Part shown: positions 8,463 through 25,178 of the stretch, piece after piece
How positions within the stretch are numbered: the stretch's first letter is position 1
How the letters are laid out: each line of letters begins with the position of its first letter
Source: Erysipelotrichaceae bacterium
GTDB lineage: Bacteria; Bacillota_I; Bacilli_A; Erysipelotrichales; Erysipelotrichaceae
Direction of reading: 5' to 3'
Assembly (NCBI GenBank): GCA_017473265.1
Contig: JAFULQ010000008.1
Span: forward strand, 1-64,000
DNA length: 64,000 nt
The notes under the pieces: generated by a model
Seen by the model: the letters and a program-made list of their open reading frames with translations, nothing else
The model's database searches: none
What the model was told of the DNA's origin: nothing
Program-made: the position numbers and the translations under genes

Positions 8463-10394
8463 CTATTCATAATGAGTAAAAATTTGTTCTAGTTCTTCAA
8501 AACTATTTGTATTTAACATTTGTTGATAGATTTCATTATTTGAAATAATATCAGTTAATGTACTGAATAATGCTCTAAAGTTGCTACGATCATCTTTCTT
8601 TAGCGAAACAATAAAAATTAAATTAACACTATTTTCTCCCCAAATAACAGGATTTTTATTGATAGAAAGAGCAACAAAAGATGCAATGTCATTATTAGAT
8701 AAAGTATGTGCAATTGCAATATTATTATAAGAACTAGGAGCTATTTTCTCGTGATTATATATTTCTGCTTTGAACTGATTGTTAATTAAGTTATTTGAAT
8801 ATAGATAATCACAGATTGTTTCAATGGCTTCCTTAGAGTTTTTAAAGCCTTTATTAAAGAAACATAAATCTTTGTTTAAATAAGATTTAAAGTTCTTAAA
8901 AGAAGCATTTCGTTTTTTGATAATTTGCAAATTGCGTACCTTACTTCGAATACTATCTACATTATGTTCGTTCAAAAATGGATCTACTAAGATTACAGGA
9001 ACATTTGAACTATATGTAAGGTCATAAGTAGAAATCAAAGCATCAAACTCATGATTCTTTAATTCGTCTGTATTTGTAACCATTGTTTCAATATAAATTA
9101 AATTACCTAACAAATTTTCAATTTTCTTATATAGGTTTTTACCAATTACATAATAATCTGGTACAACTAAAGCACATATGATTTTTTGTTGTTGTACCTT
9201 TTGTTCTTCTAAGATAACACCAACATGTAGAGTAATATATGCAATTTCATCTTCAGATAAAACATGACCAGTTTCTTGTTGAATGATATAAGCAATATTT
9301 ACAGAAATGACATATAAAAATGGATATTTATTTTTAATATCATTAAATTGTTGATTTTTAAGTGTTAGTTTTTTATCCGCTCTAATTAACACATTTTTAA
9401 GATGCAGAGCAAAACGAATATTAAACTGTTGACTATTTAAATCGATAGAATATGTATTATAAATAGTTTCAATGATTTTATTAAGAAAAGAACTCATTTC
9501 AATATCAACTACTTTTTCAATACTATCATTTAATTCGTATAAATCCACTTCTTTGGAAACTATACGTGTAGACATCAATAAAGATGCATCCATAATATCA
9601 TTAATACTGAAGTTAGCATTTTTATAATATTGACTCAATTCTTTTGTTATCTCTGTGACGATTTTAGTAATTTCAGGATCAGAGTATTCTTCAACATTAA
9701 GATGTAAGATTTGATGTTCATCTTTTTCTATTGGATTGTCATAACTAAGTTCAATACGAATTGCAAGATGAATAATATACGTTAACAAAGAATAGTGATC
9801 TACATAACACTGATGTTTAGTAAAAACTCCTAATACAATTTGACGAATATCAGATAAATTAACATGTTTAAAATATTTCTTAACATTTTCAGTAGAAAAA
9901 GATGTTTGATCTAATTCGTCACGAATTACATTTAAAGCAAAATCTTTACGATCACTTTCTTTCGCTATAGAAAACAACTTTCCTTGTTTTGTTTTGAGGT
10001 GGATATTATAATTTTTAAGTTCTCGTTTCCACTTTTCCATTTCATTTCTAAAAGTAATAGAAGAAATGCCAAATGAATCAGCTAGTGCATCGATATCCAT
10101 TATTTCGTTTTTAATAACTAATTGACGATAAATGAATTTTTTTCTTTCTTCATAATTAGTTGGAAAATTTTGATTTTCTTCATGAATAAAAGTATTTGTG
10201 TTATTGATGCGATACCCTTTATTTGAAGAAAGAATAATGGATTCTTGTTCATTGATTTTAGAAATTAAATAACGAACTTGTCGCGTAGAAAGGCTTAGTT
10301 GTTCAGCAATTGTGCTACATGGTAGCCATTTATCAGTAGATTGTAATAGTTTTATTAAGTCATTGCTTTTACTATTTTTTTCTAAAGTAATCAT
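8463..10394 (-). CDS. PRD-containing PTS transcriptional regulator (LicR/MtlR-like)
   Basis: A 643-aa modular regulator. An N-terminal HTH (about 12-50, with TIAEQLSLSTRQVRYLISKI) and a second Mga-like HTH (about 90-130) are followed by two PRD domains (about 180-285 and 295-400), containing TYIIHLAIRIELS, RFALHLKNVLIR and ITLHVGVILEEQ with candidate regulatory histidines. Next is an EIIB-like segment near 405-490 whose P-loop Cys appears to be missing (ALVVPDYYVIG), then a C-terminal EIIA-like domain (about 500-643) with H in IAIAHTL. Family members are DNA-binding activators whose activity is set by HPr- and EIIB-dependent phosphorylation. It diverges from the PTS operon, which it most likely controls through the inverted repeat at 10443-10480. 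Confidence 0.85.
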   Translation of the reverse strand: MITLEKNSKSNDLIKLLQSTDKWLPCSTIAEQLSLSTRQVRYLISKINEQESIILSSNKGYRINNTNTFIHEENQNFPTNYEERKKFIYRQLVIKNEIMDIDALADSFGISSITFRNEMEKWKRELKNYNIHLKTKQGKLFSIAKESDRKDFALNVIRDELDQTSFSTENVKKYFKHVNLSDIRQIVLGVFTKHQCYVDHYSLLTYIIHLAIRIELSYDNPIEKDEHQILHLNVEEYSDPEITKIVTEITKELSQYYKNANFSINDIMDASLLMSTRIVSKEVDLYELNDSIEKVVDIEMSSFLNKIIETIYNTYSIDLNSQQFNIRFALHLKNVLIRADKKLTLKNQQFNDIKNKYPFLYVISVNIAYIIQQETGHVLSEDEIAYITLHVGVILEEQKVQQQKIICALVVPDYYVIGKNLYKKIENLLGNLIYIETMVTNTDELKNHEFDALISTYDLTYSSNVPVILVDPFLNEHNVDSIRSKVRNLQIIKKRNASFKNFKSYLNKDLCFFNKGFKNSKEAIETICDYLYSNNLINNQFKAEIYNHEKIAPSSYNNIAIAHTLSNNDIASFVALSINKNPVIWGENSVNLIFIVSLKKDDRSNFRALFSTLTDIISNNEIYQQMLNTNSFEELEQIFTHYE

Positions 10395-10480: not shown

Positions 10481-10563
10481 TTTTTAATTCACAAGCAACA
10501 TCTACAATGTAAATAACAAAAGCTATAAGTGAAAATAGTTTTGAGATGAAAGGAGGTATTGTT

Positions 10564-10872
10564 CTGAACGAAAAATTAGTCGAAAGAACGGTTTACATTA
10601 TCGCCAATGCTGGAGACAGTAGAAGCTGTTCAATGGCTGCGATGGAATGTGCAAAAAGTGGAGATTTTGAAGAAGCTCATAATTTATTATCAGAATCTAG
10701 CGAAGCACTACATCGTGCGCATGTTGAACATACGCAATTGCTAACAGAAGATGCCAAGGGAGAAAATATTCAAGTTAGTTTGCTTTTAGTGCATGCTTCT
10801 AATCATCTTTCTGTAGCAGAGGTCACATTGGACTTTGTTCGAGAAATTATTGAACTTTATGAAAGGAGATAG
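10564..10872 (+). CDS. PTS EIIA component, lactose/cellobiose family
   Basis: About 102 aa, all-helical, the normal size for LacF/ChbA-type EIIA. The phosphorylation site is the His in LLLVHASNHLSVAEV, and the segment AAMECAKSGDFEEAHNLL is typical of the family. The start is unusual. AGGAGG at 10551-10556 sits inside the longest frame, so ATG 10546 is unlikely to be used, while CTG 10564 lies seven bases after the Shine-Dalgarno; no ATG or GTG is available there. It heads the EIIA-EIIB-EIIC operon and would pass phosphate from HPr to the neighbouring EIIB. Confidence 0.85.
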   Translation: MNEKLVERTVYIIANAGDSRSCSMAAMECAKSGDFEEAHNLLSESSEALHRAHVEHTQLLTEDAKGENIQVSLLLVHASNHLSVAEVTLDFVREIIELYERR

Positions 10873-10877
10873 TTTTG

Positions 10878-11189
10878 ATGCTTAATATTGTCTTATTGTG
10901 TCAATATGGCGCAAGTACTGGCTTAGTTGCGGATAAGATTGTTGAAGCAGCTAACAAAAGAGGGATTGAAGCAGTTGTAAATGCATATTCAGTATCAGAA
11001 GCAGCTAAGGTAATTCCTACTGCGGATATTGTTTTATTGGGACCACAAGTTCGATTCCATCAAAAGAATTTAGAAAAGGCTCATGGACATCATGGTGTAC
11101 CTATTGTACCAATGCAACCAGTTGATTATGGGCGTCTAAATGGAGAAGGTATTTTAAATACTGCTCTAGAAGTTTTAGAAAAGAAGTAA
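10878..11189 (+). CDS. PTS EIIB component, lactose/cellobiose family
   Basis: A 103-aa EIIB of the Lac/Chb type. It begins MLNIVLLCQYGASTGLVADKI, where the early Cys followed by the loop is the phosphocysteine P-loop. The later segments ADIVLLGPQVRF and VPIVPMQPVDYG match ChbB/CelA. AAAGGAGAT precedes ATG 10878; the TTG codon three bases upstream is not the better start. It accepts phosphate from EIIA and phosphorylates the sugar carried by EIIC. Confidence 0.92.
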   Translation: MLNIVLLCQYGASTGLVADKIVEAANKRGIEAVVNAYSVSEAAKVIPTADIVLLGPQVRFHQKNLEKAHGHHGVPIVPMQPVDYGRLNGEGILNTALEVLEKK

Positions 11190-11201: not shown

Positions 11202-12485
11202 ATGTCTGAAACTAAAACAAATTTTGTCGATAAAATTGCGGACGTTTTAACACCAGTTGCCGCAAAAATGCAAGAAATGCATTTAATTTCAGCTTTAGCT
11301 GAAACAATGCAAGCAGTAATGCCAATTACTATTATTGGTTCATTTGCTTGTTTAGCAGCTTTCTTGGATCTTGGAGGATATCAAGCGTTTTTAGCTAATC
11401 ATCCAGCAATTATGACAATTGCTATGAGTATCCAATCACTAACATTAAGCTGCTTTGCTTTATATGTTTTACTATTATTACCATATTTATATGCAAATAA
11501 ATTAGGTATGAAACAATCGCTAACAATGATTCCATTATCATTAGCAGCTTTCTTATTAATCACACCACATGAATTATATACAAACATTCATACTGAATGG
11601 TTGGGTAATAAAGGTTTATTATCTGCTATTTTAATTTCATTTGTAGTTGTACGTGTTGCTAAATTCTTTATTGATAAGAAAATCTGTTTAAGAATGCCTG
11701 CTGGTGTTCCTAAGTTTGTAGAAGAAGGATTTGGTATTTTAGTTCCTGCTGCTGTTATTTGGGTAACATGTGCTATTGTACAACACTTTATGGCTGCTAC
11801 ATCATTTGGTTCTGTTCATATGGTTATTTACACAATTTTACAAAAACCATTCCAAACAGTTGGTTTATCATTAATTGGACAAACAGTAACTGAAACTATG
11901 GCTACATTATGTATGTTCTTAGGCTTACATGCGAATACAGTTATCGGTGTTGTTGAACCATTACGTTATGCAGCTGCTGCTGAAAACTTAGCTGCATGGC
12001 AAGCTGGTTTAGAATTGCCAAATATTGCTCCATATGGATTCACTAACTTATCATTAATTGGAGCTGGTGGAAGCTGCTTATCTGCTACATTAGCATTCTT
12101 AATCTTCTCTAAATCTAAGAGATATCAAAGTGTTGCTAGAATTGCTGTTCTTCCAGGTATTTTCGGTGTTGGAGAACCAATCTTATTTGGTTTACCAATC
12201 ATGTTAAATCCTACAGCATTTATTCCATTTATTGGTGTTGTTATTTTTAACCAAATCTATGCTTATTCAATTATTGCAATTGGTCTAGTTGGTAAATTTA
12301 CAGGTGCTACTATCCACTGGACATGTCCTCCTTTCTTGAACATGATTTTATCAAGTTCAACTCCATTCCGTGCATGTATTGCATTAGCAATTGAATTAGT
12401 AATTAACTTATTAATTTGGTATCCATTCGTTAAGATGATGGATAAAGAAGCTTTGGCTGAAGAAGCAGAAGCTGCAGAAAAATAA
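11202..12485 (+). CDS. PTS EIIC permease, cellobiose/beta-glucoside type
   Basis: A 427-aa integral membrane protein with about ten hydrophobic segments, of the lactose/cellobiose EIIC family (CelB/ChbC). Recognisable stretches are PVAAKMQEMHLISALAETM, MPITIIGSFACL, GVGEPILFGLPIMLNPT and the conserved WTCPPFLNMILSS near the C-terminus. The GEPILFG loop contains the family's substrate-binding Glu. With the adjacent EIIA and EIIB it forms a complete uptake system. The GH1 enzyme downstream argues for a beta-glucoside substrate. Confidence 0.92.
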   Translation: MSETKTNFVDKIADVLTPVAAKMQEMHLISALAETMQAVMPITIIGSFACLAAFLDLGGYQAFLANHPAIMTIAMSIQSLTLSCFALYVLLLLPYLYANKLGMKQSLTMIPLSLAAFLLITPHELYTNIHTEWLGNKGLLSAILISFVVVRVAKFFIDKKICLRMPAGVPKFVEEGFGILVPAAVIWVTCAIVQHFMAATSFGSVHMVIYTILQKPFQTVGLSLIGQTVTETMATLCMFLGLHANTVIGVVEPLRYAAAAENLAAWQAGLELPNIAPYGFTNLSLIGAGGSCLSATLAFLIFSKSKRYQSVARIAVLPGIFGVGEPILFGLPIMLNPTAFIPFIGVVIFNQIYAYSIIAIGLVGKFTGATIHWTCPPFLNMILSSSTPFRACIALAIELVINLLIWYPFVKMMDKEALAEEAEAAEK

Positions 12486-12559: not shown

Positions 12560-13393
12560 ATGAAAAAAATAGTCTTTGTTGATGTAGATGGAACTTTGGT
12601 GAATTATGAAAATCATTTACCAAAATCAGCTATTTGTGCAATTCGTAAGGCTAGAGAAAATGGCCATAAAGTATTTATTAGTACAGGAAGAAGTAAAGCG
12701 GAAGTTTATCAAGAAATCTGGGATATTGGTATTGATGGAATGATTGGTGGTAATGGAAGTTATATAGAAGTTGATGGTAATTGTATTTATCACCAATATA
12801 TTTCATTAGAGCAGTGTAAAGAAATAGTGGATTGGTTTGATGAAAAAGGTTTTGCATACTATCTAGAAAGCAATAATGGTCTTTTTGCAAGTAAAGATTT
12901 TGAAAGTAAAGCTATTGATGCAATTCGAGAATATGCACGAAGAAAAGGTGGAAATCATGTAGAGCAAATGCAAGTTACAGATGCATATCCTGATATGATC
13001 TTTAATGGTAATGTATATCGTAATGATGTTAATAAAATAAGTTATAAATTAAATAGCTATCAAGATTATTTAGATGTAAAAGAAAGATTCCCTAATTTTA
13101 AAAATGGAACATGGGGAGGAGAATTTGATAAAGCTTTATTTGGAGATATTGGTTTAAAGGATATCAATAAAGCAAAAGCAATTGCGTTTTTATTAGATTA
13201 CTTAGCTATGACAATCGAACAAACCATTGCTATTGGTGATGCGAAAATAGATATTCCGATGTTGGAATATTGCAATATTGGTGTTTCTATGGGCAATGGA
13301 GGAGAACAAATAAAAAAAGTAGCGGATTATATAACTGATGATGTTGATGACGATGGGTTATATAAGGCGTTTGAATATTTAGAATTGCTTTAA
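12560..13393 (+). CDS. Cof-type HAD hydrolase in the PTS/flavoenzyme cluster
   Basis: A 277-aa Cof-type phosphatase. Motif I is FVDVDGTLVNYE, motif II FISTGRSK, the motif III Lys lies in DINKAKAI, and motif IV is AIGDAKIDIPMLEY. The C2 cap lies between. It sits 12 bp before the first flavoenzyme gene and after the EIIC hairpin, so it is probably in the same transcript. In a PTS pathway a HAD could dephosphorylate released sugar 6-phosphate, but this family is promiscuous. Confidence 0.87.
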   Translation: MKKIVFVDVDGTLVNYENHLPKSAICAIRKARENGHKVFISTGRSKAEVYQEIWDIGIDGMIGGNGSYIEVDGNCIYHQYISLEQCKEIVDWFDEKGFAYYLESNNGLFASKDFESKAIDAIREYARRKGGNHVEQMQVTDAYPDMIFNGNVYRNDVNKISYKLNSYQDYLDVKERFPNFKNGTWGGEFDKALFGDIGLKDINKAKAIAFLLDYLAMTIEQTIAIGDAKIDIPMLEYCNIGVSMGNGGEQIKKVADYITDDVDDDGLYKAFEYLELL

Positions 13394-15294: not shown

Positions 15295-15510
15295 ATGATT
15301 AAAGTATCAGGGCCTAAAATACAAGAAGTAGTACAAAAAGTTGATGGACAAGATATTAATGGTATTGTTTATACATTTACTGGTAAAATACAAGGAATAC
15401 AAGCAACATTCACTACAAATAGTGAGAATGAAGAAATTGCAAAAGATAATTTAAAAAAATATTTAAAACAAAATATGGGACCTTATCGAATGTATGTTGA
15501 AGTAGTTTGA
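15295..15510 (+). CDS. Small protein of 71 aa between two flavoenzymes
   Basis: It starts MIKVSGPKIQEVVQKVDGQD and ends GPYRMYVEVV, with AAAGGAG before the ATG. The sequence alternates short strands with one helix-like stretch (about 43-60, EEIAKDNLKKYLKQ) and has no signal peptide or membrane segment; it looks like a compact alpha/beta fold. I do not recognise the family. It is 11 bp after OYE 1, and its stop TGA overlaps the ribosome site of OYE 2, so it is an integral operon member. It may be an accessory subunit or a binding protein. Confidence 0.7.
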   Translation: MIKVSGPKIQEVVQKVDGQDINGIVYTFTGKIQGIQATFTTNSENEEIAKDNLKKYLKQNMGPYRMYVEVV

Positions 15511-15518
15511 GGAATAAT

Positions 15519-17441
15519 ATGAAATATCCAAATATATTTGCACCACTACGAGTTAAAAATATAATGTTGAAAAACAGAATTATTGCAGCACCTATGGGTA
15601 CTCCAAAAGCAACAGTTCTTTCATCTACCAATTATGGAGGACTTAGTATTTGGGATAAATCAAAAGGAGGTGCAGCAGTAGTAACTGTGTCTGATATGTA
15701 TCTTGCTAATTTGGCACAGGAAAAAGATGCTTTTAGTAAATATGCAAAAGACGTTACAAGAGAAGTTTTATCTATTTGCCGTCAAGCGGGTTCTTTAGCT
15801 ATGTTAGAAATTGCTTTTATGGGAAATAAAAATACAGATGGAACCATACAAGGACCAAGCAATGGGAAACATTTTACTGGTGGAATCATGAAAGAAATGT
15901 CACTAGAAGAAATGAAAGAAATGAAAAATAATCTTGTAAGACGTGCACAACAAGCTAAAGAATTTGGCTTTGATATGTTGATGTTACATTTTGGACATGA
16001 TAGTTTATGTTCTTTATTTCTATCTCCTATATGGAATCAAAGAGATGATATGTACGGTGGTTCATTAGATAATCGTATTCGATATGCTAAAGAAGTATTA
16101 GAAGCAATCCGCACAGCAGTTGGTGAAGACTATCCAATTCTTGTACGTTTTTCAAGAAGTTTAAAAGTGCAAGAAACCTTCAAAGAAGAAGATATGCTCT
16201 ATTTAATAAAACAAGTACAACATCTTATTGATATTGTAAATGTATCTTGTGGTATGGATTGTTATGGCGGAACAATTGATAAATATGTTGCTAATACATA
16301 TAGTCATTCAACGATATTCTTACCAAGAATGTACAATTTAGCTTTTGCAGAAAAAGTGAAAAAGGAATGTAATGTATTAGTTTGTGTTGTTGGTGGAGTA
16401 TTAGATCCTAAAGAAGCTGAAGCTGCGATTAAAGCAGGAAAAACAGATTTAGTTATGATGGGAAGACAATTAATCGCAGATCCATATTGGCCAAAGAAAT
16501 TACAAAATGGATTGGAAGAAGATATTGTTCCATGTTTAAGATGTTTGTATTGTTATCATATTTCTACTGAACATGATAATACACAATGTTCAGTGAATCC
16601 ACGATATCGTAGAGAAAATCGTGTACCACTAAAACTTGAAAAAGTAGAGTCTAATAAACATGTGGTAGTCATTGGTGGAGGTCCCGCTGGAATGAAAGCA
16701 GCATTAACCTTAAACGATAAAGGACATAAGGTAACATTAATTGAAAAAGAACCTCAATTAGGGGGTAACTTAAAATATGCTGATTATGGAATGTTTAAAG
16801 AAGAACTAAAGAAATATAGAGAGTATTTAATACATCAAGTACAAAACGCAAATATTCAACTAATATTAAATAAAGAAGCAACCAAAGAATATGTTGAATC
16901 GCTTCATCCTGATGGATTGATAATTGCGGTAGGAGCTGATATTAAAAAACCACAAATTATGGGTATAGAATATGCTATTCATGCATTAGATATTTATCCA
17001 AAATTAAATCAAGTTAAAGGTAGTGTAGTTGTTATTGGTGGAGGAACCATTGGAAGTGAACTTGCATATGAACTAAGTTTACTAAACCACGAAGTTTCTA
17101 TTATTGAAAAACAAGATGCACTAGTAAAAAATGCCAATTGGTTATATCGACATGGCTTCTATAATGCAGTAAAAGACTCTGGTCATTTATTGAAAGTATA
17201 TGTAGAAAGTCAAGTAAAGGAAATAACTCCAACCGGTGTATCTTTTATAGATAAAGATGGAAAAGAATGCTTTATAAAAGCAGATACCATTGTATTGGCA
17301 ACAGGTATGACAGAAAGAAGAGAATTGGCCTTTTCTTTCTATGGAATTACTCCTGAAACAGCTATGGTTGGAGACTGCTATAAAGTTGCTCAAGTTTTAC
17401 AAGCAACCAACGATGCTTACTTTATAGCAGAAAATATGTAG
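15519..17441 (+). CDS. Old Yellow Enzyme family NAD(FAD) oxidoreductase 2
   Basis: About 640 aa, same architecture as its neighbours: FMN barrel, cysteine cluster, FAD and NAD(P) domains. Cluster CLRCLYCYHISTEHDNTQC is CX2CX2CX11C. The Rossmann motifs are VVVIGGGPAGMKAAL and VVVIGGGTIGSELAY. In the barrel the usual AHG[YW] active-site stretch is replaced by HFGHDSLCSLFLSP, unlike the HGW of OYE 1 and OYE 3, which suggests a different substrate or mechanism. I start at ATG 15519 with GAGGAA upstream; the TTG at 15507 is poorer. Confidence 0.85.
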   Translation: MKYPNIFAPLRVKNIMLKNRIIAAPMGTPKATVLSSTNYGGLSIWDKSKGGAAVVTVSDMYLANLAQEKDAFSKYAKDVTREVLSICRQAGSLAMLEIAFMGNKNTDGTIQGPSNGKHFTGGIMKEMSLEEMKEMKNNLVRRAQQAKEFGFDMLMLHFGHDSLCSLFLSPIWNQRDDMYGGSLDNRIRYAKEVLEAIRTAVGEDYPILVRFSRSLKVQETFKEEDMLYLIKQVQHLIDIVNVSCGMDCYGGTIDKYVANTYSHSTIFLPRMYNLAFAEKVKKECNVLVCVVGGVLDPKEAEAAIKAGKTDLVMMGRQLIADPYWPKKLQNGLEEDIVPCLRCLYCYHISTEHDNTQCSVNPRYRRENRVPLKLEKVESNKHVVVIGGGPAGMKAALTLNDKGHKVTLIEKEPQLGGNLKYADYGMFKEELKKYREYLIHQVQNANIQLILNKEATKEYVESLHPDGLIIAVGADIKKPQIMGIEYAIHALDIYPKLNQVKGSVVVIGGGTIGSELAYELSLLNHEVSIIEKQDALVKNANWLYRHGFYNAVKDSGHLLKVYVESQVKEITPTGVSFIDKDGKECFIKADTIVLATGMTERRELAFSFYGITPETAMVGDCYKVAQVLQATNDAYFIAENM

Positions 17442-18869
<1,428 letters not shown>

Positions 18870-18909: not shown

Positions 18910-19098
18910 ATGAAAACTGAAAGTAAATTAGCGACTTTTGCATTGGCAGGATTTAGTGTATGGGTACCATTAGTTGGAATAATATTATGGTATATGTGTA
19001 ATAAAAGAAAAGATGAAAAAGCTGCAAAACTATTTGCTATTTGTGCCTTAATTGGATTTGTAATTAATTTTGTTCCTAGATTAATTGGAGCAATGTAA
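18910..19098 (+). CDS. Small two-TM membrane protein, 62 aa
   Basis: It begins MKTESKLATFALAGFSVWV. Hydrophobic segments lie at about 8-29 and 42-59, separated by a basic loop NKRKDEKAAK, giving a helical hairpin. Its ribosome site is weak (AGAAAT), and a 6-bp hairpin (18880-18898) lies in the gap after GH1. It could be a small regulator or chaperone in the cluster. Family not recognised. Position and direction fit the operon. Confidence 0.6.
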   Translation: MKTESKLATFALAGFSVWVPLVGIILWYMCNKRKDEKAAKLFAICALIGFVINFVPRLIGAM

Positions 19099-19113: not shown

Positions 19114-20184
19114 ATGAAATACGGTACAGATAAATATTATTGGGATACATTAACCAAAGAAGATATGTTAATACGTCCAACACGATTTAATAATGATGAA
19201 GACATGCACCCTGAAAGGAGTATTGTTACTTGTTTGGGTACATGGTTTGATCAAGGGACAGATAAAGCTCCTGTTTCGTATTTTCGTTTAATGAATTTAG
19301 ATAGTCCTCGTTGGGCGGGTATGGTACGCCCGGGTGATGGACCTTTAACAAAACATACAGTTTTACATTTAGATGATATTGCCCAAAAAGGAGATATCAT
19401 GATTCCTTATCAAAAATTACAAAGTAATCCTGATGTTTGGGGTTGGGGCGTTGAAGATCCATTTGTGGAAGTTAGATATTATGAAGATGGGACCATTACA
19501 TGGAAAGAAGGGAAAGATGGAAGTATCTTAGATGTAAAACTAGAACCTTTTCCATATACATTTTTTATTCATGTATGTGAACAATTTCCAGTTAGTACAT
19601 TTTATTCGAACGGATGTTATTTGAAAGGTACTTATGAAGGAAAACCAATTGAAGGAATTGGCTTTCATGATGGACAATTTGTGCCAACGGATAAAACAGA
19701 TAAAGAAACAGCATGGCAAAAAACAACAGATTATCTAACGGCAAATTGTGTAGGTATTCGTGAAGATGGAAGAAAAGAGGTTTGTTTCTTTAATGGTGAA
19801 GCCGATCATTTGGTTGGTGGATATTGGTTAGAAGGAGAAGAACCAATTGTTGATGGTAATGTAAAAATTACCGGTAATTGGGTACATTTACCATATACAG
19901 ATGATGGTACTTGTTTAATGCCAACTTTTGATATTCAAATTGGTTCAAAAACTATTCATTTTGAAGGAAAATGGGGTTTAAAAGGATGGGGAAAAGAAGA
20001 TTCAGCTGAAAATGCCGAAAAAGGATTGCCATCTTTTGGAGATCGACATGGAGAATCACAATGTATAGGCACATTCTATGAAGGAGATATTCCATATAAA
20101 CATCGTGTATGGCAAACGTTTATTGAAAATATGCAAGCGTTTGACTATAAGCTTAAAGCTAGAGGGCATAAGGTAATAGATTAG
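19114..20184 (+). CDS. Cluster protein A of a paralogous pair, family unknown
   Basis: A 356-aa cytoplasmic protein with no signal peptide or TM segment. It is rich in Trp, Gly, Asp and Tyr, suggesting a beta-rich fold. Conserved blocks shared with the next gene are RYYEDGTITWKEG, GSILDV.LEPFP, CEQFPVSTFY, GGYWLEGEEPIVD, WVHLPY.DDGTC, FEGKWGLKGW and FYEGD(I/V)PY. GGGGGTG precedes the ATG. I cannot name a family. A calycin/CrtC-like barrel is a weak guess from the GYWLEG and FEGKWGLKG strands. It is placed between GH1 and OYE 3, so a role in aglycone binding or conversion is inferred. Confidence 0.75.
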   Translation: MKYGTDKYYWDTLTKEDMLIRPTRFNNDEDMHPERSIVTCLGTWFDQGTDKAPVSYFRLMNLDSPRWAGMVRPGDGPLTKHTVLHLDDIAQKGDIMIPYQKLQSNPDVWGWGVEDPFVEVRYYEDGTITWKEGKDGSILDVKLEPFPYTFFIHVCEQFPVSTFYSNGCYLKGTYEGKPIEGIGFHDGQFVPTDKTDKETAWQKTTDYLTANCVGIREDGRKEVCFFNGEADHLVGGYWLEGEEPIVDGNVKITGNWVHLPYTDDGTCLMPTFDIQIGSKTIHFEGKWGLKGWGKEDSAENAEKGLPSFGDRHGESQCIGTFYEGDIPYKHRVWQTFIENMQAFDYKLKARGHKVID

Positions 20185-20192
20185 GTGGTATC

Positions 20193-21227
20193 ATGGCAGA
20201 TTTTTATTTTGATAAAAAAACAGTAAATGATTATACGGAAAAGCCAGATCGCTTTCAAAACGAAAAAGATGGTTTCGCTAAAGTGTATTGTATAGAGAGT
20301 ATTGCGACATTATATGTGAATGGAACAAGTCAAGCACCTGTGCATTTTTTTCGTCATATGAATGTAGATAAAACCCGTTTTGCAGGCATGGTACAAACAG
20401 GAGAAGGACCACTAACAACACAAACAGAAGCCCATGTTGAAGATTTAGCTGGTCCAAATGCAACAATTAAACGATATCAACAATTATCTGCTCATCCACT
20501 ATTGTTTGGGTATAGTGCAGATAAACCTTTTTGTGAGTATCGCTATTATGAAGATGGGACTATTACATGGAAAGAAGGGGAAAATGGTTCTATTTTAGAT
20601 GTGAGATTAGAACCATTCCCAATAGCTTTCTTCTTGCATAGATGTGAACAATTTCCAGTTAGTACATTTTACACGCATCCGCATATTATTCATGGTACAT
20701 ATGAAGGCAAACCAATTATTGGTATTGGTAATGATGATCGTCAATATATTCCAGATGTAAAAGTAGATGCACAAACACAAGAAAAAAATTACCAAAAAAC
20801 AACAGATTATTTAACCGCAAACTGTGCTGGCGTTAGAAAAGATGGTAGAAGAGAAATAGCATTCTTTAATGGCAACTATGGACACTTAGCAGGTGGATAT
20901 TGGTTAGAAGGAGAAGAACCCATTGTAGATGATAATGTACAAATTATCGGTGACTGGGTACATTTACCGTATTGTGATGATGGAACATGTGTAATGGTAA
21001 AATTTGATTTTAAAATTGGACCAAAAACCATTCATTTTGAAGGTAAATGGGGTCTAAAAGGATGGACAAGTACACCAAATCTTGCCAAACACGGACAATC
21101 TCAAGTATTAGGTACCTTCTATGAAGGAGATGTTCCATATGAACATACTGTTTGGCAAACGTTTGTTGAAAATATGGCAGCTTTTGATGAAAAATTAAAA
21201 AAAGTTGGATATAAAGTTGTTGATTAA
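20193..21227 (+). CDS. Cluster protein B of a paralogous pair, family unknown
   Basis: A 344-aa paralogue of the preceding protein, colinear with it over nearly its whole length apart from a shorter loop before the C-terminal FYEGDVPYEHTVWQTF. The central block RYYEDGTITWKEG through CEQFPVSTFYT is almost identical, while the N-terminus and the loop after STFY differ. The ATG follows AGGTGG. The adjacent copies (9-bp gap) look like an old tandem duplication, and they could form a heterodimer. Function unknown. Confidence 0.75.
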   Translation: MADFYFDKKTVNDYTEKPDRFQNEKDGFAKVYCIESIATLYVNGTSQAPVHFFRHMNVDKTRFAGMVQTGEGPLTTQTEAHVEDLAGPNATIKRYQQLSAHPLLFGYSADKPFCEYRYYEDGTITWKEGENGSILDVRLEPFPIAFFLHRCEQFPVSTFYTHPHIIHGTYEGKPIIGIGNDDRQYIPDVKVDAQTQEKNYQKTTDYLTANCAGVRKDGRREIAFFNGNYGHLAGGYWLEGEEPIVDDNVQIIGDWVHLPYCDDGTCVMVKFDFKIGPKTIHFEGKWGLKGWTSTPNLAKHGQSQVLGTFYEGDVPYEHTVWQTFVENMAAFDEKLKKVGYKVVD

Positions 21228-21243: not shown

Positions 21244-23145
21244 ATGAAATATACACATTTATTTTCACCAATTCCATTCAATGGAATAATGCTAAAAAAT
21301 AGAATTATTGCAGCCCCAATAAGTGATGAATATGAAGAAAAAGCAAAAGGTGGAGCTGCATTGGTTGTTTGCGGACATTCTATTGTGGAATATGGTAGAA
21401 GTAGTTTTGCTAGTGGATATGAGCAAAGTGCTTTCTTTAAATATGAAGTGGAAAAAACACAACAAAAAATTCGTACATGTCATAAAGCGGGAGCACGCGC
21501 TTCAATTGAATTATTTCATGCTGGTTTATATGCAAGAACACTACCAGATACTTTTGCATGGGGACCATGTGCCTTTGTTCGTGAAGATGGTGTAGAAGTA
21601 AGAGCATTGGATGAAGAAAGCATGACAAAGGTAATCGAATTATATGCAAATGAGGCTAAAAATGCCAAAGATTTAGGTTTTGATGCAATTTTCTTGCATT
21701 TCGGTCATGGTTGGTTACCAGCTCAGTTTTTATCTCCATTGTATAATCATCGTACGGATGAATTTGGTGGATGTATTGAAAATCGTGCCAAATTTCCATT
21801 AATGATTTTAAAACGAATTCGTGAAGTAGTAGGTTCAACATATCCAATTGAAATGCGTATTTCGGGGGAAGAATGTGTTCCTGGATCAATTAAATTTGAA
21901 GATACATTGTCATTCATATTAATGGCAGAACCATATATTGATTCTGTACAAATATCTGCTGGACTAGATATTAATTATGAAGGTAATACTCGTTGTGCAT
22001 CAACAAATTTAGTAGAACATATGCCAAATTTACATTGGGCAAAAGAAGTAAAAAAACATGTTAAGAAAATAAACGTTTCAATGGTAGGAGCTATTATGGG
22101 ACCGGATGAAGCTGAAGAAATATTAGCAAAAGGATACGTGGATACTGTCGCATTTGGTAGAAGTTTTAATGCAGATCCTGATTGGCCAAATAAAGCAAAA
22201 GAAGGAAGAGAAGAAGATATTCGTCCTTGTTTACGTTGTAACCAATGTTATCATATTACAACCTATCGTAGAAATGTTGGTTGCTCGGTAAACCCAAGAT
22301 ATCATAATGAAAAAATAATTGAAAAAGAAGTAACACCTACAAACAATCCAAAGAAAGTGGTTGTTGTAGGGGCGGGGCCTGCTGGAATGATGTGTGCTAT
22401 TACAGCATCAAAACGAGGACATCAAGTTGTATTATTAGAAAAGAATAGTGAAGTCGGTGGCGCTTTGAATTTGATTGCCAAGGAACACTATAAAGCGGAT
22501 GTTGCTAGATATTTACAATACTTAAAAACACAATTAGCAAAATCAGAGGTTGTAACTCGTTTGAATTATAATGCAACTCCAGAAAAAATCAAAGAAATGC
22601 AACCAGATGCTTTAGTACTAGCATTAGGTGGAGAACCAGTTGTCTTACCAATAGAAGGAGTACATTTGCCTCATGTTATGACATATGAACAAGCAATTAT
22701 GAATCCTGAAAGTGTTGGGAATCATCCTTTAATTATTGGGGGAGGAACTATAGGTTTAGAATTAGCAATAGAGTTTAATGAAATACATGGAAAAGATGTA
22801 ACCATTGTAGAGTTAACGGATAAATTAGCTGCACAAGGTAATATGTTATACCGTATTGCATTAAGACAAAAGTATGAAAGTTTAAAAAATCCATTAAAGA
22901 TTCATTGCGAAAGTAAAGCGACCAAAATTACAAAAGAAAGTGTTGTATTACAAAGTAAAGATGGAAGCATTAAAGAAGTATATGCAGATACAGTAATTTT
23001 ATGTACAGGCGTCAAGTCAAAACGAGACATTATTCATGAATTTTATGGAATTACATGTGAAACATATGAAATTGGAGATGTTATCCGACCAAGATTGATT
23101 CAAGAAGCAACCTTTGAAGGTTATGGTGTAGGCGAAACAATTTAA
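21244..23145 (+). CDS. Old Yellow Enzyme family NAD(FAD) oxidoreductase 3
   Basis: A 633-aa enzyme with FMN barrel, Fe-S cluster and two nucleotide-binding domains. The active-site stretch HFGHGWLPAQFLSPLYNHR and the following DEFGG are well kept. Cluster CLRCNQCYHITTYRRNVGC is CX2CX2CX11C. Rossmann motifs are VVVVGAGPAGMMCAI and IIGGGTIGLELAI. The start is ATG 21244 (MKYTHLF) after AAAGGAG; a longer frame lacks support. It closes the flavoenzyme set together with the SnoaL-like gene. Confidence 0.86.
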   Translation: MKYTHLFSPIPFNGIMLKNRIIAAPISDEYEEKAKGGAALVVCGHSIVEYGRSSFASGYEQSAFFKYEVEKTQQKIRTCHKAGARASIELFHAGLYARTLPDTFAWGPCAFVREDGVEVRALDEESMTKVIELYANEAKNAKDLGFDAIFLHFGHGWLPAQFLSPLYNHRTDEFGGCIENRAKFPLMILKRIREVVGSTYPIEMRISGEECVPGSIKFEDTLSFILMAEPYIDSVQISAGLDINYEGNTRCASTNLVEHMPNLHWAKEVKKHVKKINVSMVGAIMGPDEAEEILAKGYVDTVAFGRSFNADPDWPNKAKEGREEDIRPCLRCNQCYHITTYRRNVGCSVNPRYHNEKIIEKEVTPTNNPKKVVVVGAGPAGMMCAITASKRGHQVVLLEKNSEVGGALNLIAKEHYKADVARYLQYLKTQLAKSEVVTRLNYNATPEKIKEMQPDALVLALGGEPVVLPIEGVHLPHVMTYEQAIMNPESVGNHPLIIGGGTIGLELAIEFNEIHGKDVTIVELTDKLAAQGNMLYRIALRQKYESLKNPLKIHCESKATKITKESVVLQSKDGSIKEVYADTVILCTGVKSKRDIIHEFYGITCETYEIGDVIRPRLIQEATFEGYGVGETI

Positions 23146-23161
23146 GGAGATACGCATAAGT

Positions 23162-23869
23162 ATGAAAGTTTTAAAAATGAGAATGATGGATACATGCGAT
23201 TTACTAAATAAAATTGCAGAAATTAAATTGAAAGATGATAAGAAGATAATTATCTTCTTTCAAAAAGATGTGGCAGAAGATGAATGCCATATAATAATTC
23301 CTAAATGTAAATGTTTGAAAATAGAAGATGGTATTTATCAATTGTTATTTACATATGAACAACAAACTACAACAGCAATCATAAATTTATGCAATCATAT
23401 GATTACATTCACTTCAATTAAAGAAAATGGTGATTTTGATGTCAATCAAGGTAGTTTTTACTTAATTACTAAAGAAAATGAATTAGATTCATCATGTGTA
23501 ACGAACGAAGATATTGCGGTAGATTTTTGGTTGCGATTTTTTGATCAACATGACGAAACTGCAATTGATGACTATTTAGAAGAACCATATTTACAACACA
23601 ATCCAAAAGTTGCAGATGGAATAGAAGCATTTAGAAATGAATTTCATGATCGTTTTTATACAGATATGAAAGAATGTCATACAGAAATAAAACGCGTTGT
23701 ATCAAGAGGAGACTTAGTGTTTATACACAATATATTAAAAAGAAATCCACAGGTCAAAGGGCATGCAGCAGTTGATATTTTTAGAGTAGAAAATGGCAAA
23801 ATTGTTGAACATTGGGATGTGATTCAACCTATGCCAGAAACATCTAAAAATGATCATCCAATGTTTTAA
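23162..23869 (+). CDS. SnoaL-like protein with extra N-terminal domain
   Basis: A 235-aa protein. Residues from about 118 to 230 (IAVDFWLRFFDQHDETAIDDY, EPYLQHNPKVADGIEAF, VFIHNILKRNPQV, AAVDIFRVENGKIVEHWDV) match the SnoaL-like NTF2 fold, used by polyketide cyclases, isomerases and dehydratases. The first 110 or so residues are a separate, Lys- and Cys-containing region I do not recognise. It is the last gene of the cluster, ending at a bidirectional terminator. A SnoaL fold beside OYE reductases recalls BaiE with BaiCD/BaiH, but no other bai genes are present. Confidence 0.72.
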   Translation: MKVLKMRMMDTCDLLNKIAEIKLKDDKKIIIFFQKDVAEDECHIIIPKCKCLKIEDGIYQLLFTYEQQTTTAIINLCNHMITFTSIKENGDFDVNQGSFYLITKENELDSSCVTNEDIAVDFWLRFFDQHDETAIDDYLEEPYLQHNPKVADGIEAFRNEFHDRFYTDMKECHTEIKRVVSRGDLVFIHNILKRNPQVKGHAAVDIFRVENGKIVEHWDVIQPMPETSKNDHPMF

Positions 23870-23879
23870 ACAAAAAAAC

Positions 23880-23910
23880 ACACAAGAGAGATATATTATT
23901 TCTCTTGTGT
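23880..23910. terminator. Bidirectional terminator
   Basis: ACACAAGAGA (23880-23889) pairs with TCTCTTGTGT (23901-23910), flanked by an A-run and a T-run. It separates the cluster from the convergent DUF3284/GntR genes. Confidence 0.85.
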
Positions 23911-24327
23911 TTTCTTTTGCTCTAATAAATACTTTTCTACATCTCTCATTCGCTTCTCAGTTTTTTTAATAAAACCTTTTTCAATGAATGAATTATACTT
24001 TTTAAGCTTGTTGTTTTGATCATACATCTTTTCTGTATAGGTAATTTCACATTGGTTATCACCTTTTGGAAGAATAAGATATTTGTTGATATTTGTTTGT
24101 TTACTCGTTTTATATTCCATTTCTATAACTCTAGGATATACATAATCTAGGATTTTAACAGTTGATAATTCGTTTTTAAATCCAGTATTTAGTGACCGTT
24201 CAAATTTTAAGCCTTTACGTATAGTTTTATTTTCAACATCACTGACATCAACAATTGTTTGAATTGTGGAGATTACAAAATCAAAATATTCTTTTGCGTT
24301 GATTTGCGCTACAATTTTAACTTCCAT
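23896..24327 (-). CDS. DUF3284-like protein
   Basis: A 143-aa cytoplasmic protein beginning MEVKIVAQINAKEYFDFVI, resembling DUF3284 proteins that accompany cellobiose/beta-glucoside PTS genes in lactobacilli and relatives. The fold looks START/SRPBCC-like (a beta-sheet with a long C-terminal helix TEKRMRDVEKYLLEQ). I start at ATG 24327, where AGAGGTGA is correctly spaced. It lies 11 bp after gntR and is probably cotranscribed with it. The link to a PTS supports the beta-glucoside reading of the neighbouring cluster, but the molecular role is unknown. Confidence 0.65.
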   Translation of the reverse strand: MEVKIVAQINAKEYFDFVISTIQTIVDVSDVENKTIRKGLKFERSLNTGFKNELSTVKILDYVYPRVIEMEYKTSKQTNINKYLILPKGDNQCEITYTEKMYDQNNKLKKYNSFIEKGFIKKTEKRMRDVEKYLLEQKKTQEK

Positions 24328-24338
24328 AAATCTCACCT

Positions 24339-25091
24339 CTATTTCTTAACTAGTTTTAAACTAAATTTACTACGATCGCCCCTATATTTCGCAATACTGT
24401 ATTCCATAGGAACATCGTTTTGATTATAACTAATAGTTGTTGTTTGACAAATAGCACTATTTTTATTTGTTTGTAATAGTTTAGCAGTTTTATCATCTGC
24501 TAAAGTAGCTTCAATAGTACGATTAACAGACTGAATTGAACAATTGTATTTTTGTTCTAACAAAGAATATAAAGAATTGTTTTCAAAATCTTCATTTTCT
24601 AATAGAGGAAACATTGTACATGGTAAATATGTTTCTACAATAACCATTGGATCATGATTCGCAAAACGCAAGCGTTTCAAATGTAAAACTTTCGCATCTT
24701 TTGGTAGTTGTAATGCGTCCGCAACTACATTATTAACTGTTTCGATTTCATTAGATAATAAGGTAGTAGATGGAGTTAAACCAAGCATTTTCATTTCATC
24801 ATTAAAGCTAGCCAATTGTTCAAAGAAATAACTATCAATTTTAGGCTGTGATACAAAAGTTCCTAAAGGCTTTCTTCTTGTTAACAAACCTTCTTGAATT
24901 AATTCTTTTAGTGCTTGTCTTACTGTTGGACGAGAAATTTGTAAAGCTTCACAAAACTCATTTTCTGTAGGAATTTGATCGTTAACTTTAAATGTGCCAT
25001 CTTGAATTCTATTCTTCAATTCTTGTTTAAATTGATAATATAAAGGAATCGGAATGTTTTTATCAATGTGAAATAATTCTTGTAAATTCAT
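24339..25091 (-). CDS. GntR-family (HutC/UTRA) transcriptional regulator
   Basis: A 250-aa regulator. The N-terminal winged helix has IPLYYQFKQELKNRI, IPTENEFCEALQISRPTVRQALKELIQEGLLTRR in two adjoining parts and KPLGTFV. Residues from about 80 to the end form a UTRA effector domain (VLHLKRLRFANHDPMVIVETYL, IEATLADDKTAKLL). UTRA domains bind small sugars or amino-acid derivatives. It starts at ATG 25091 after GGGGA; the longer frame is not needed. It diverges from deoC, and a palindrome in the shared promoter region is its likely operator. Confidence 0.85.
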   Translation of the reverse strand: MNLQELFHIDKNIPIPLYYQFKQELKNRIQDGTFKVNDQIPTENEFCEALQISRPTVRQALKELIQEGLLTRRKPLGTFVSQPKIDSYFFEQLASFNDEMKMLGLTPSTTLLSNEIETVNNVVADALQLPKDAKVLHLKRLRFANHDPMVIVETYLPCTMFPLLENEDFENNSLYSLLEQKYNCSIQSVNRTIEATLADDKTAKLLQTNKNSAICQTTTISYNQNDVPMEYSIAKYRGDRSKFSLKLVKK

Positions 25092-25116
25092 ATGTATTTC
25101 CCCTTTAGTTATTTTA

Positions 25117-25178
25117 ATTATAAAGCAAAGTAATTTAGTTGACAATATGAAGTTATAACGTTAGAATGTAATTACATT
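25117..25178. promoter_or_regulatory. Back-to-back gntR and deoC promoters with palindromic operator
   Basis: Plus strand: TTGACA (25139-25144), 17 bp, TAGAAT (25162-25167) drives deoC. Minus strand: TTGTCA (25145-25140), 17 bp, TATAAT (25122-25117) drives gntR. The two -35 boxes overlap almost fully. AATGTAATTACATT (25165-25178) is a perfect 14-bp palindrome over the deoC -10 edge, the size and place expected for a GntR operator. The promoter boxes are seen directly; the binding is inferred. Confidence 0.7.

What the first reader, a model, noticed from the sequence alone, without database searches (positions are those of the whole stretch)
19114..21227. Tandem paralogues of an unrecognised, Trp-rich family
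Two adjacent 344-356-aa proteins share long conserved blocks (RYYEDGTITWKEG, CEQFPVSTFY, GGYWLEGEEPIVD, FEGKWGLKGW). The strong conservation of charged and aromatic residues suggests an active or binding site, and the tandem copy suggests a heteromer or two substrates. I cannot place them in any family.
Basis: seen in the sequence. Interest (0 to 1): 0.65.

Follow-up and report, generated by a model that had tools for sequence, protein, structure and literature searches.

The report
AttH-fold enzyme pair in plant-glucoside operon
Two neighbouring genes in a gut-type bacterium encode a previously unclassified pair of double-barrel proteins, built like enzymes that add water to, or eliminate groups from, plant and steroid compounds, and their relatives almost always sit beside genes that import and split plant glucosides, so they probably help process the released plant chemical.

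Summary
ORFs 19114-20184 (A, 356 aa) and 20193-21227 (B, 344 aa) are 57% identical tandem paralogues with no usable Pfam, NCBIfam, PHROGs or PDB sequence match, alone or as a profile of 22 relatives. "Trp-rich" fits A (12 W) better than B (6 W). AlphaFold models of both have low pLDDT (48, 43), yet both match one structural superfamily: two-barrel calycins AttH (2ich), kievitone hydratase, 25-phosphosteroid lyase and CghA/Fsa2 Diels-Alderases (for A, Z 8.7-11.3; next fold 4.8). Hallmark AttH/CrtC motifs are absent, so this is a separate family. I found it only in Erysipelotrichaceae; Clostridia could not be sampled. Relatives are linked to PTS genes (15 of 18 contigs) and a GH1 6-phospho-beta-glucosidase (11 of 18), with two unrelated PTS types. 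OYE reductases accompany mainly the A/B subclade; one relative is fused to a HAD phosphatase. Best reading: cofactor-free hydratase/dehydratase/lyase-type enzymes that process the aglycone (or intact phosphoglucoside) of PTS-imported beta-glucosides, here working with three BaiCD-like reductases. Pathway link is well supported and fold probable; reaction and substrate are inferred. A new family within a known fold class.

The parts
19114..20184 (+). Paralogue A, 356 aa, two-domain AttH/CrtC-like calycin (predicted)
   Evidence: fold:
20193..21227 (+). Paralogue B, 344 aa, two-domain AttH/CrtC-like calycin (predicted)
   Evidence: fold:
8463..10394 (-). BglG/MtlR-type PTS-regulated transcription regulator with EIIA-like domain, divergent from the operon
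   Evidence: homologues lie in 9 other neighbourhoods
10546..10872 (+). PTS EIIA, lactose/cellobiose family
   Evidence: TIGR00823, E 2e-27
10875..11189 (+). PTS EIIB, lactose/cellobiose family
   Evidence: TIGR00853, E 3e-23
11202..12485 (+). PTS EIIC, lactose/cellobiose family
   Evidence: TIGR00410, above cut-off
12560..13393 (+). Cof-type HAD phosphatase; homologous to the HAD domain fused to a family member in L039
13406..15283 (+). OYE/BaiCD-like flavin and Fe-S ene-reductase 1
15507..17441 (+). OYE/BaiCD-like ene-reductase 2
17451..18869 (+). GH1 6-phospho-beta-glucosidase, the only GH1 found in this genome
   Evidence: (above cut-off of NF007154, NF007158 and NF007356)
21244..23145 (+). 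OYE/BaiCD-like ene-reductase 3 (likely ATG start at 21244)
23162..23869 (+). Protein with SnoaL-like C-terminal domain; a homologue is also beside the family member in L003

Best explanation
A and B are cytoplasmic, cofactor-independent enzymes of the two-barrel AttH/CrtC calycin superfamily and form their own family within it. They work in a pathway in which a PTS imports and 6-phosphorylates a plant beta-glucoside and a GH1 6-phospho-beta-glucosidase releases the aglycone. The family member then does acid-base chemistry (hydration, dehydration or another elimination/isomerisation) on the aglycone or on the intact phosphoglucoside, in a cleft between the barrels lined by invariant Arg, Glu, Asp, His and Lys. 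In this window's variant, three BaiCD-like OYE reductases and a SnoaL-fold protein would saturate or remove the function so exposed, much as a dehydratase and ene-reductases cooperate in bile acid 7-dehydroxylation. Supported by results: existence, paralogy, conservation, operon linkage and (from low-confidence but concordant models) fold. Inferred: location in the cytoplasm, catalysis itself, reaction type, site of the active cleft, substrate and order of steps.
For: Fold: from model A, VIA-align gives 2ich AttH Z 11.3, 25-phosphosteroid lyase 10.4, kievitone hydratase 10.0 and the Diels-Alderases 8.7-9.5, then a gap to 4.8. Model B gives the same families at Z 8.6-10.8, next fold 7.2. Foldseek ranks AttH first for both (E 9.7e-7 and 1.1e-5). 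Pathway: PTS genes lie with the family gene in 15 of 18 contigs and GH1 in 11 of 18. GH1 is near it in 10 of 13 genomes against 0.27 expected, P about 1e-16 (gene numbers approximated from genome size). Two unrelated PTS types are used (Lac/Cel IIABC; Bgl IIBC with LicT), so the shared factor is the beta-glucoside rather than one transporter. PTS plus phospho-beta-glucosidase loci take up and deglucosylate plant glucosides in Lactobacillus acidophilus (PMC5698550). The three OYEs match BaiCD best, below its cut-off. BaiE, the dehydratase of the bai pathway, is a SnoaL_4 protein (PMC10382948).
Against: Model confidence is low (mean pLDDT 43 and 48, only 3 sequences in the alignment). Profile-profile comparison with AttH finds nothing (P 0.84), though it also links AttH with a CrtC only weakly (P 0.03), so it is weak evidence. 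The AttH/CrtC signature residues (EWWY, conserved WxW) are absent, so a known catalytic set cannot be transferred. One divergent relative lies in a genome with no GH1 found (G227, about 83% complete), and two operons with PTS lack GH1 (L003, L037). No substrate is known.
Confidence: 0.5

Rival explanations
1. The family is a non-hydrolytic phosphoglucoside-cleaving enzyme: it eliminates the aglycone (or phosphate) from the imported 6-phospho-beta-glucoside, acting beside or instead of GH1, as 25-phosphosteroid lyase eliminates phosphate within the same fold.
For: 25-phosphosteroid lyase is among the best structural matches (Z 10.4). Two apparently complete PTS operons with a family gene have no GH1 (L003, L037). 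Invariant Arg/Lys could bind phosphate. A HAD phosphatase is fused or near in several loci.
Against: Most loci also hold GH1 in the same operon, which would make a second cleaving enzyme redundant. The genomes of the GH1-lacking operons (G104, G011) have many GH1 genes elsewhere. Phosphate binding was not tested.
Confidence: 0.15
2. The proteins are non-catalytic, lipocalin-like carriers or sinks that bind the toxic aglycone and hand it to the reductases or to export.
For: Many calycins bind small hydrophobic ligands (general knowledge). Tandem copies of differing specificity would fit. In L. acidophilus aglycones are exported largely unmodified (PMC5698550).
Against: More than a dozen invariant charged or aromatic residues across 22 diverged proteins are more than a ligand-binding barrel needs (inference). 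The members of this two-barrel class with known function that matched here are enzymes (kievitone hydratase, 25-PSL, Diels-Alderases); AttH itself has no function stated in its entry.
Confidence: 0.2
3. A pericyclase or isomerase role, such as in a biosynthetic pathway, as for the Diels-Alderases CghA and Fsa2.
For: These are top structural matches for model B (Z 10-10.8).
Against: No biosynthetic genes were recognised near the window copy or in the neighbourhoods examined. The context is catabolic (PTS, phospho-glucosidase, PTS-responsive regulators).
Confidence: 0.05

Closest known systems
AttH (PF07143 CrtC + PF17186 Lipocalin_9; PDB 2ich, Agrobacterium pAt lipocalin-like protein)
   Same: Predicted two-barrel fold over most of the length; best Foldseek match for both models
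   Different: No profile similarity; EWWY and the conserved WxW absent in all 22 relatives; different gene neighbours
Kievitone hydratase (7a0t) and carotenoid 1,2-hydratase CrtC
   Same: Fold (kievitone hydratase Z 9.9-10.0); cofactor-free chemistry; a plant phenolic as substrate in the first case
   Different: CrtC catalytic Asp and Trp pair (D268, W283, W285; PMC12402844) have no conserved equivalent recognised here
25-phosphosteroid lyase of anaerobic sterol degradation (9g4c, 9fzn)
   Same: Fold (Z 9.1 and 10.4); a superfamily member that eliminates phosphate, in an anaerobic catabolic setting
   Different: Steroid substrate and pathway; only 7-10% identity in the structural alignments
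Plant-glucoside PTS / phospho-beta-glucosidase loci of Lactobacillus acidophilus
   Same: PTS import and intracellular GH1 deglucosylation (PMC5698550)
   Different: No AttH-like or OYE genes are described in the passages read; aglycones are mostly exported unmodified
bai operon for bile acid 7-dehydroxylation
   Same: BaiCD-like OYEs and a SnoaL-fold protein side by side (PMC10382948)
   Different: No CoA ligase, CoA transferase or BaiA-type gene recognised in the operon; glucoside import instead; the AttH-like pair has no bai counterpart

Membership tests
Two-barrel AttH/CrtC calycin superfamily (fold level) | Two consecutive beta-barrel (calycin) domains in one chain of about 320-380 aa | tested here: met
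   Both models match the superfamily structures over 230-268 residues at Z 8.6-11.3, with the caveat of mean pLDDT 43-48
AttH family (PF07143 + PF17186) | Match to Pfam CrtC and Lipocalin_9 profiles | tested here: not met
   No such match for A, B or 22 relatives at E up to 1; Agrobacterium AttH matches both strongly
AttH family (PF07143 + PF17186) | Invariant EWWY near the N-terminus and W-[DN]-W after the LDxEW-type motif | tested here: not met
   Present in all 10 AttH-like proteins; EWWY in none of 22 family members, and the only W-x-W is an unrelated WGW in paralogue A
Carotenoid 1,2-hydratase / kievitone hydratase | Catalytic Asp (CrtC D268) with Trp pair W283/W285 | tested here: inconclusive
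   No conserved W-x-W, and the Asp of the similar-looking GxGxxDR segment varies, but positions were compared by eye, not by a confident structural alignment
Carotenoid 1,2-hydratase / kievitone hydratase | Water addition to an isoprenoid double bond | not testable with these tools
   Needs an enzyme assay
25-phosphosteroid lyase | Phosphate-binding site and C-O lyase activity | not testable with these tools
   Invariant Arg/Lys exist, but no coordinates or assay were available
Phospho-beta-glucoside utilisation operon (context) | PTS IIA/IIB/IIC, GH1 6-phospho-beta-glucosidase and BglG-type regulator together | tested here: met
   for the window genes; for relatives
bai-type reductive dehydroxylation pathway | True BaiCD / BaiE orthologues | tested here: not met
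   OYEs score 340-376 bits against the BaiCD cut-off of 825; the SnoaL protein matches SnoaL and SnoaL_2, not SnoaL_4

The most novel reading that the evidence does not exclude
A new enzyme family of the AttH/CrtC fold carries out a new step in plant-glucoside catabolism in gut Erysipelotrichaceae: either non-hydrolytic cleavage of 6-phospho-beta-glucosides, or dehydration/hydration of the aglycone that makes it an electron acceptor for BaiCD-like reductases, that is, a glucoside-fed reductive dehydroxylation pathway.
Probability: 0.25. Interest if true: 0.75.

Novelty: new variant of a known kind. Interest (0 to 1): 0.45.

Why it matters
Gut bacteria release and transform plant phytochemicals from their glucosides, yet most enzymes acting after deglucosylation are unknown. 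An unannotated family tied to beta-glucoside PTS operons, with a fold used by hydratases, lyases and pericyclases, gives a concrete candidate for such steps, and it makes the question testable with a single operon in which the only GH1 of the genome, the family pair and three reductases lie together.

Tried and rejected
Sequence libraries (Pfam, NCBIfam, PHROGs, PDB by sequence, alone and as profile) gave nothing usable. Profile-profile comparison with AttH and with one CrtC was negative; the positive control AttH versus CrtC was itself weak, so this does not exclude homology. A search for PF07143 in 245 genomes of the phylum, and in the control genomes, rang nowhere, so it is uninformative. 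Clostridia could not be sampled, because no centre genome outside the window's phylum was available, so the restriction to Erysipelotrichaceae holds only for the sampled order, class and phylum. Considered and rejected: a recent local duplication (the tree separates A and B); a mobile or phage element (no viral relatives, no PHROGs match); an obligate partner of OYE (most relatives have no OYE nearby); an obligate partner of GH1 (G211 has many GH1 and no family gene; G227 has a family gene and no GH1 found). Literature searches found no description of the family.

Full report
Observation. The two ORFs exist as described: A 19114-20184 (356 aa) and B 20193-21227 (344 aa), both on the + strand with Shine-Dalgarno-like sequences and 8 bp between them. 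They are 57% identical over 352 columns. The Trp richness is clear only in A (12 Trp, against 6 in B).

Sequence classification. Neither protein, nor 22 relatives scanned singly, nor a profile of them, matches Pfam, NCBIfam, PHROGs or the sequences of the PDB in a usable way. Relatives occur in 15 of 273 genomes of the window's own family. Samples of order, class and phylum added none outside it, and viral contigs and plasmids have none. A scan of genome contigs with B, which reaches close relatives only, found one locus, in a Solobacterium metagenome assembly (Erysipelotrichaceae). Clostridia were not testable, so the true range is open.

Conservation. Across 22 relatives, 26 positions are invariant. 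The invariant charged or aromatic ones are R54, R62, E128, R215, D217, E221, Y236, Y260, D263, H281, W286, K289, Y316 and E326 in B numbering. That density of invariant charged residues fits an active site better than simple ligand binding (inference). Both A and B keep all of them.

Fold. Mean pLDDT was 43 for B and 48 for A, which is low, and on its own I would not trust either model. The searches nevertheless agree. For A, VIA-align lists fourteen entries at Z 8.7-11.3 and then drops to 4.8; all fourteen are members of one structural class: AttH (2ich), 25-phosphosteroid lyase, kievitone hydratase and the Fsa2/Phm7/CghA-type pericyclases. For B the same class fills Z 8.6-10.8 and the next fold scores 7.2. 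Foldseek puts AttH first in both cases. The fold assignment is therefore likely, but residue-level correspondence is not established.

Not AttH proper. I took AttH from the Agrobacterium At plasmid and nine diverse relatives and aligned them. hhalign finds no similarity to our profile. As a control, AttH against a CrtC is also weak, so this is not evidence of unrelatedness. All ten AttH-like proteins carry EWWY and W-[DN]-W. No family member here has EWWY, and only paralogue A has a W-x-W, elsewhere in the chain. In CrtC the important residues are D268, W110, W283 and W285 (PMC12402844); no conserved equivalent is evident here. The family is thus best described as a new family within the fold class, with its own active-site set.

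Genomic context. In the window the operon runs: PTS IIA, IIB, IIC (lactose/cellobiose family), HAD phosphatase, two OYE/BaiCD-like reductases, GH1 6-phospho-beta-glucosidase, a small ORF, A, B, a third OYE and a SnoaL-domain protein, with a divergent BglG/MtlR-type regulator. Across 18 contigs carrying a family gene, PTS genes lie with it in 15 and GH1 in 11 (L043 and L044 are near-identical copies from two genomes). The PTS is of two unrelated kinds: Lac/Cel IIABC, or Bgl-type IIBC with a LicT antiterminator and Glc-type IIA. A rough test with GH1 counts per genome gives 10 of 13 genomes observed against 0.27 expected, P about 1e-16 (gene totals are estimates, and GH1 counts include split matches). 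This genome has exactly one detected GH1, and it is the one in this operon. OYE genes accompany the subclade of A and B (six of its seven members) and one other locus, so OYE looks like an addition to a more general PTS/GH1 association. A natural fusion of a Cof-type HAD with a family member occurs in G228 (L039), and HAD genes lie nearby in the window, L032 and L042.

Two paralogues. In the tree, A groups with L030, L032 and one L031 copy (support 99/97). B's closest relative by identity and path length is L003; B's exact position is unresolved. Genome G104 holds an A-like copy, the B-like L003 copy and a third one. The pair is therefore older than these genomes and has been kept, which favours different substrates or steps; a heteromer is possible but untested.

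Mechanism. The best-supported account: glucoside imported and phosphorylated by the PTS, deglucosylated by GH1, aglycone (or phosphoglucoside) processed by the family enzyme, and in this variant reduced by the OYEs. PTS plus phospho-beta-glucosidase loci do the first two steps for plant glucosides in L. acidophilus (PMC5698550). The reaction type (hydration, dehydration or elimination) is inferred from the fold class only. The parallel with the bai operon (BaiCD-like reductases and a SnoaL-fold neighbour; BaiE is a SnoaL_4 protein, PMC10382948) is a resemblance of parts, not membership: the OYEs score far below the BaiCD cut-off and the SnoaL protein matches other SnoaL families.

Verdict. Real, unclassified, well conserved, with a probable fold and a strong pathway link; substrate and reaction remain open.

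Noticed in passing
L039:440-2344 (-): A natural fusion of a Cof-type HAD phosphatase with a family member in one 634-aa ORF (genome G228), suggesting a functional link to a phosphatase.
   Followed up: partly
window 18910-19098 (+): Small ORF of about 62 aa between GH1 and paralogue A, apparently a membrane protein with two hydrophobic stretches (read by eye from the sequence).
   Followed up: no
window 23896-24336 (-) and 24339-25145 (-): A DUF3284 protein and a GntR/UTRA regulator lie convergent to the operon; a GntR homologue also lies near the divergent family member in L042.
   Followed up: no
L045:9234-10287 (+) and G123:C218:22159-22449: Two family members look broken: one split over two frames (frameshift or assembly error), one truncated with an in-frame TAG.
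   Followed up: no
L042:8562-9584 (-): The most divergent relative sits beside a YdjC-type deacetylase, a GntR regulator and a HAD gene, without PTS or GH1, in a genome where no GH1 was found.
   Followed up: partly
G000:C17:13034-16106 (-): Two further OYE-family genes lie side by side elsewhere in the window's genome.
   Followed up: no
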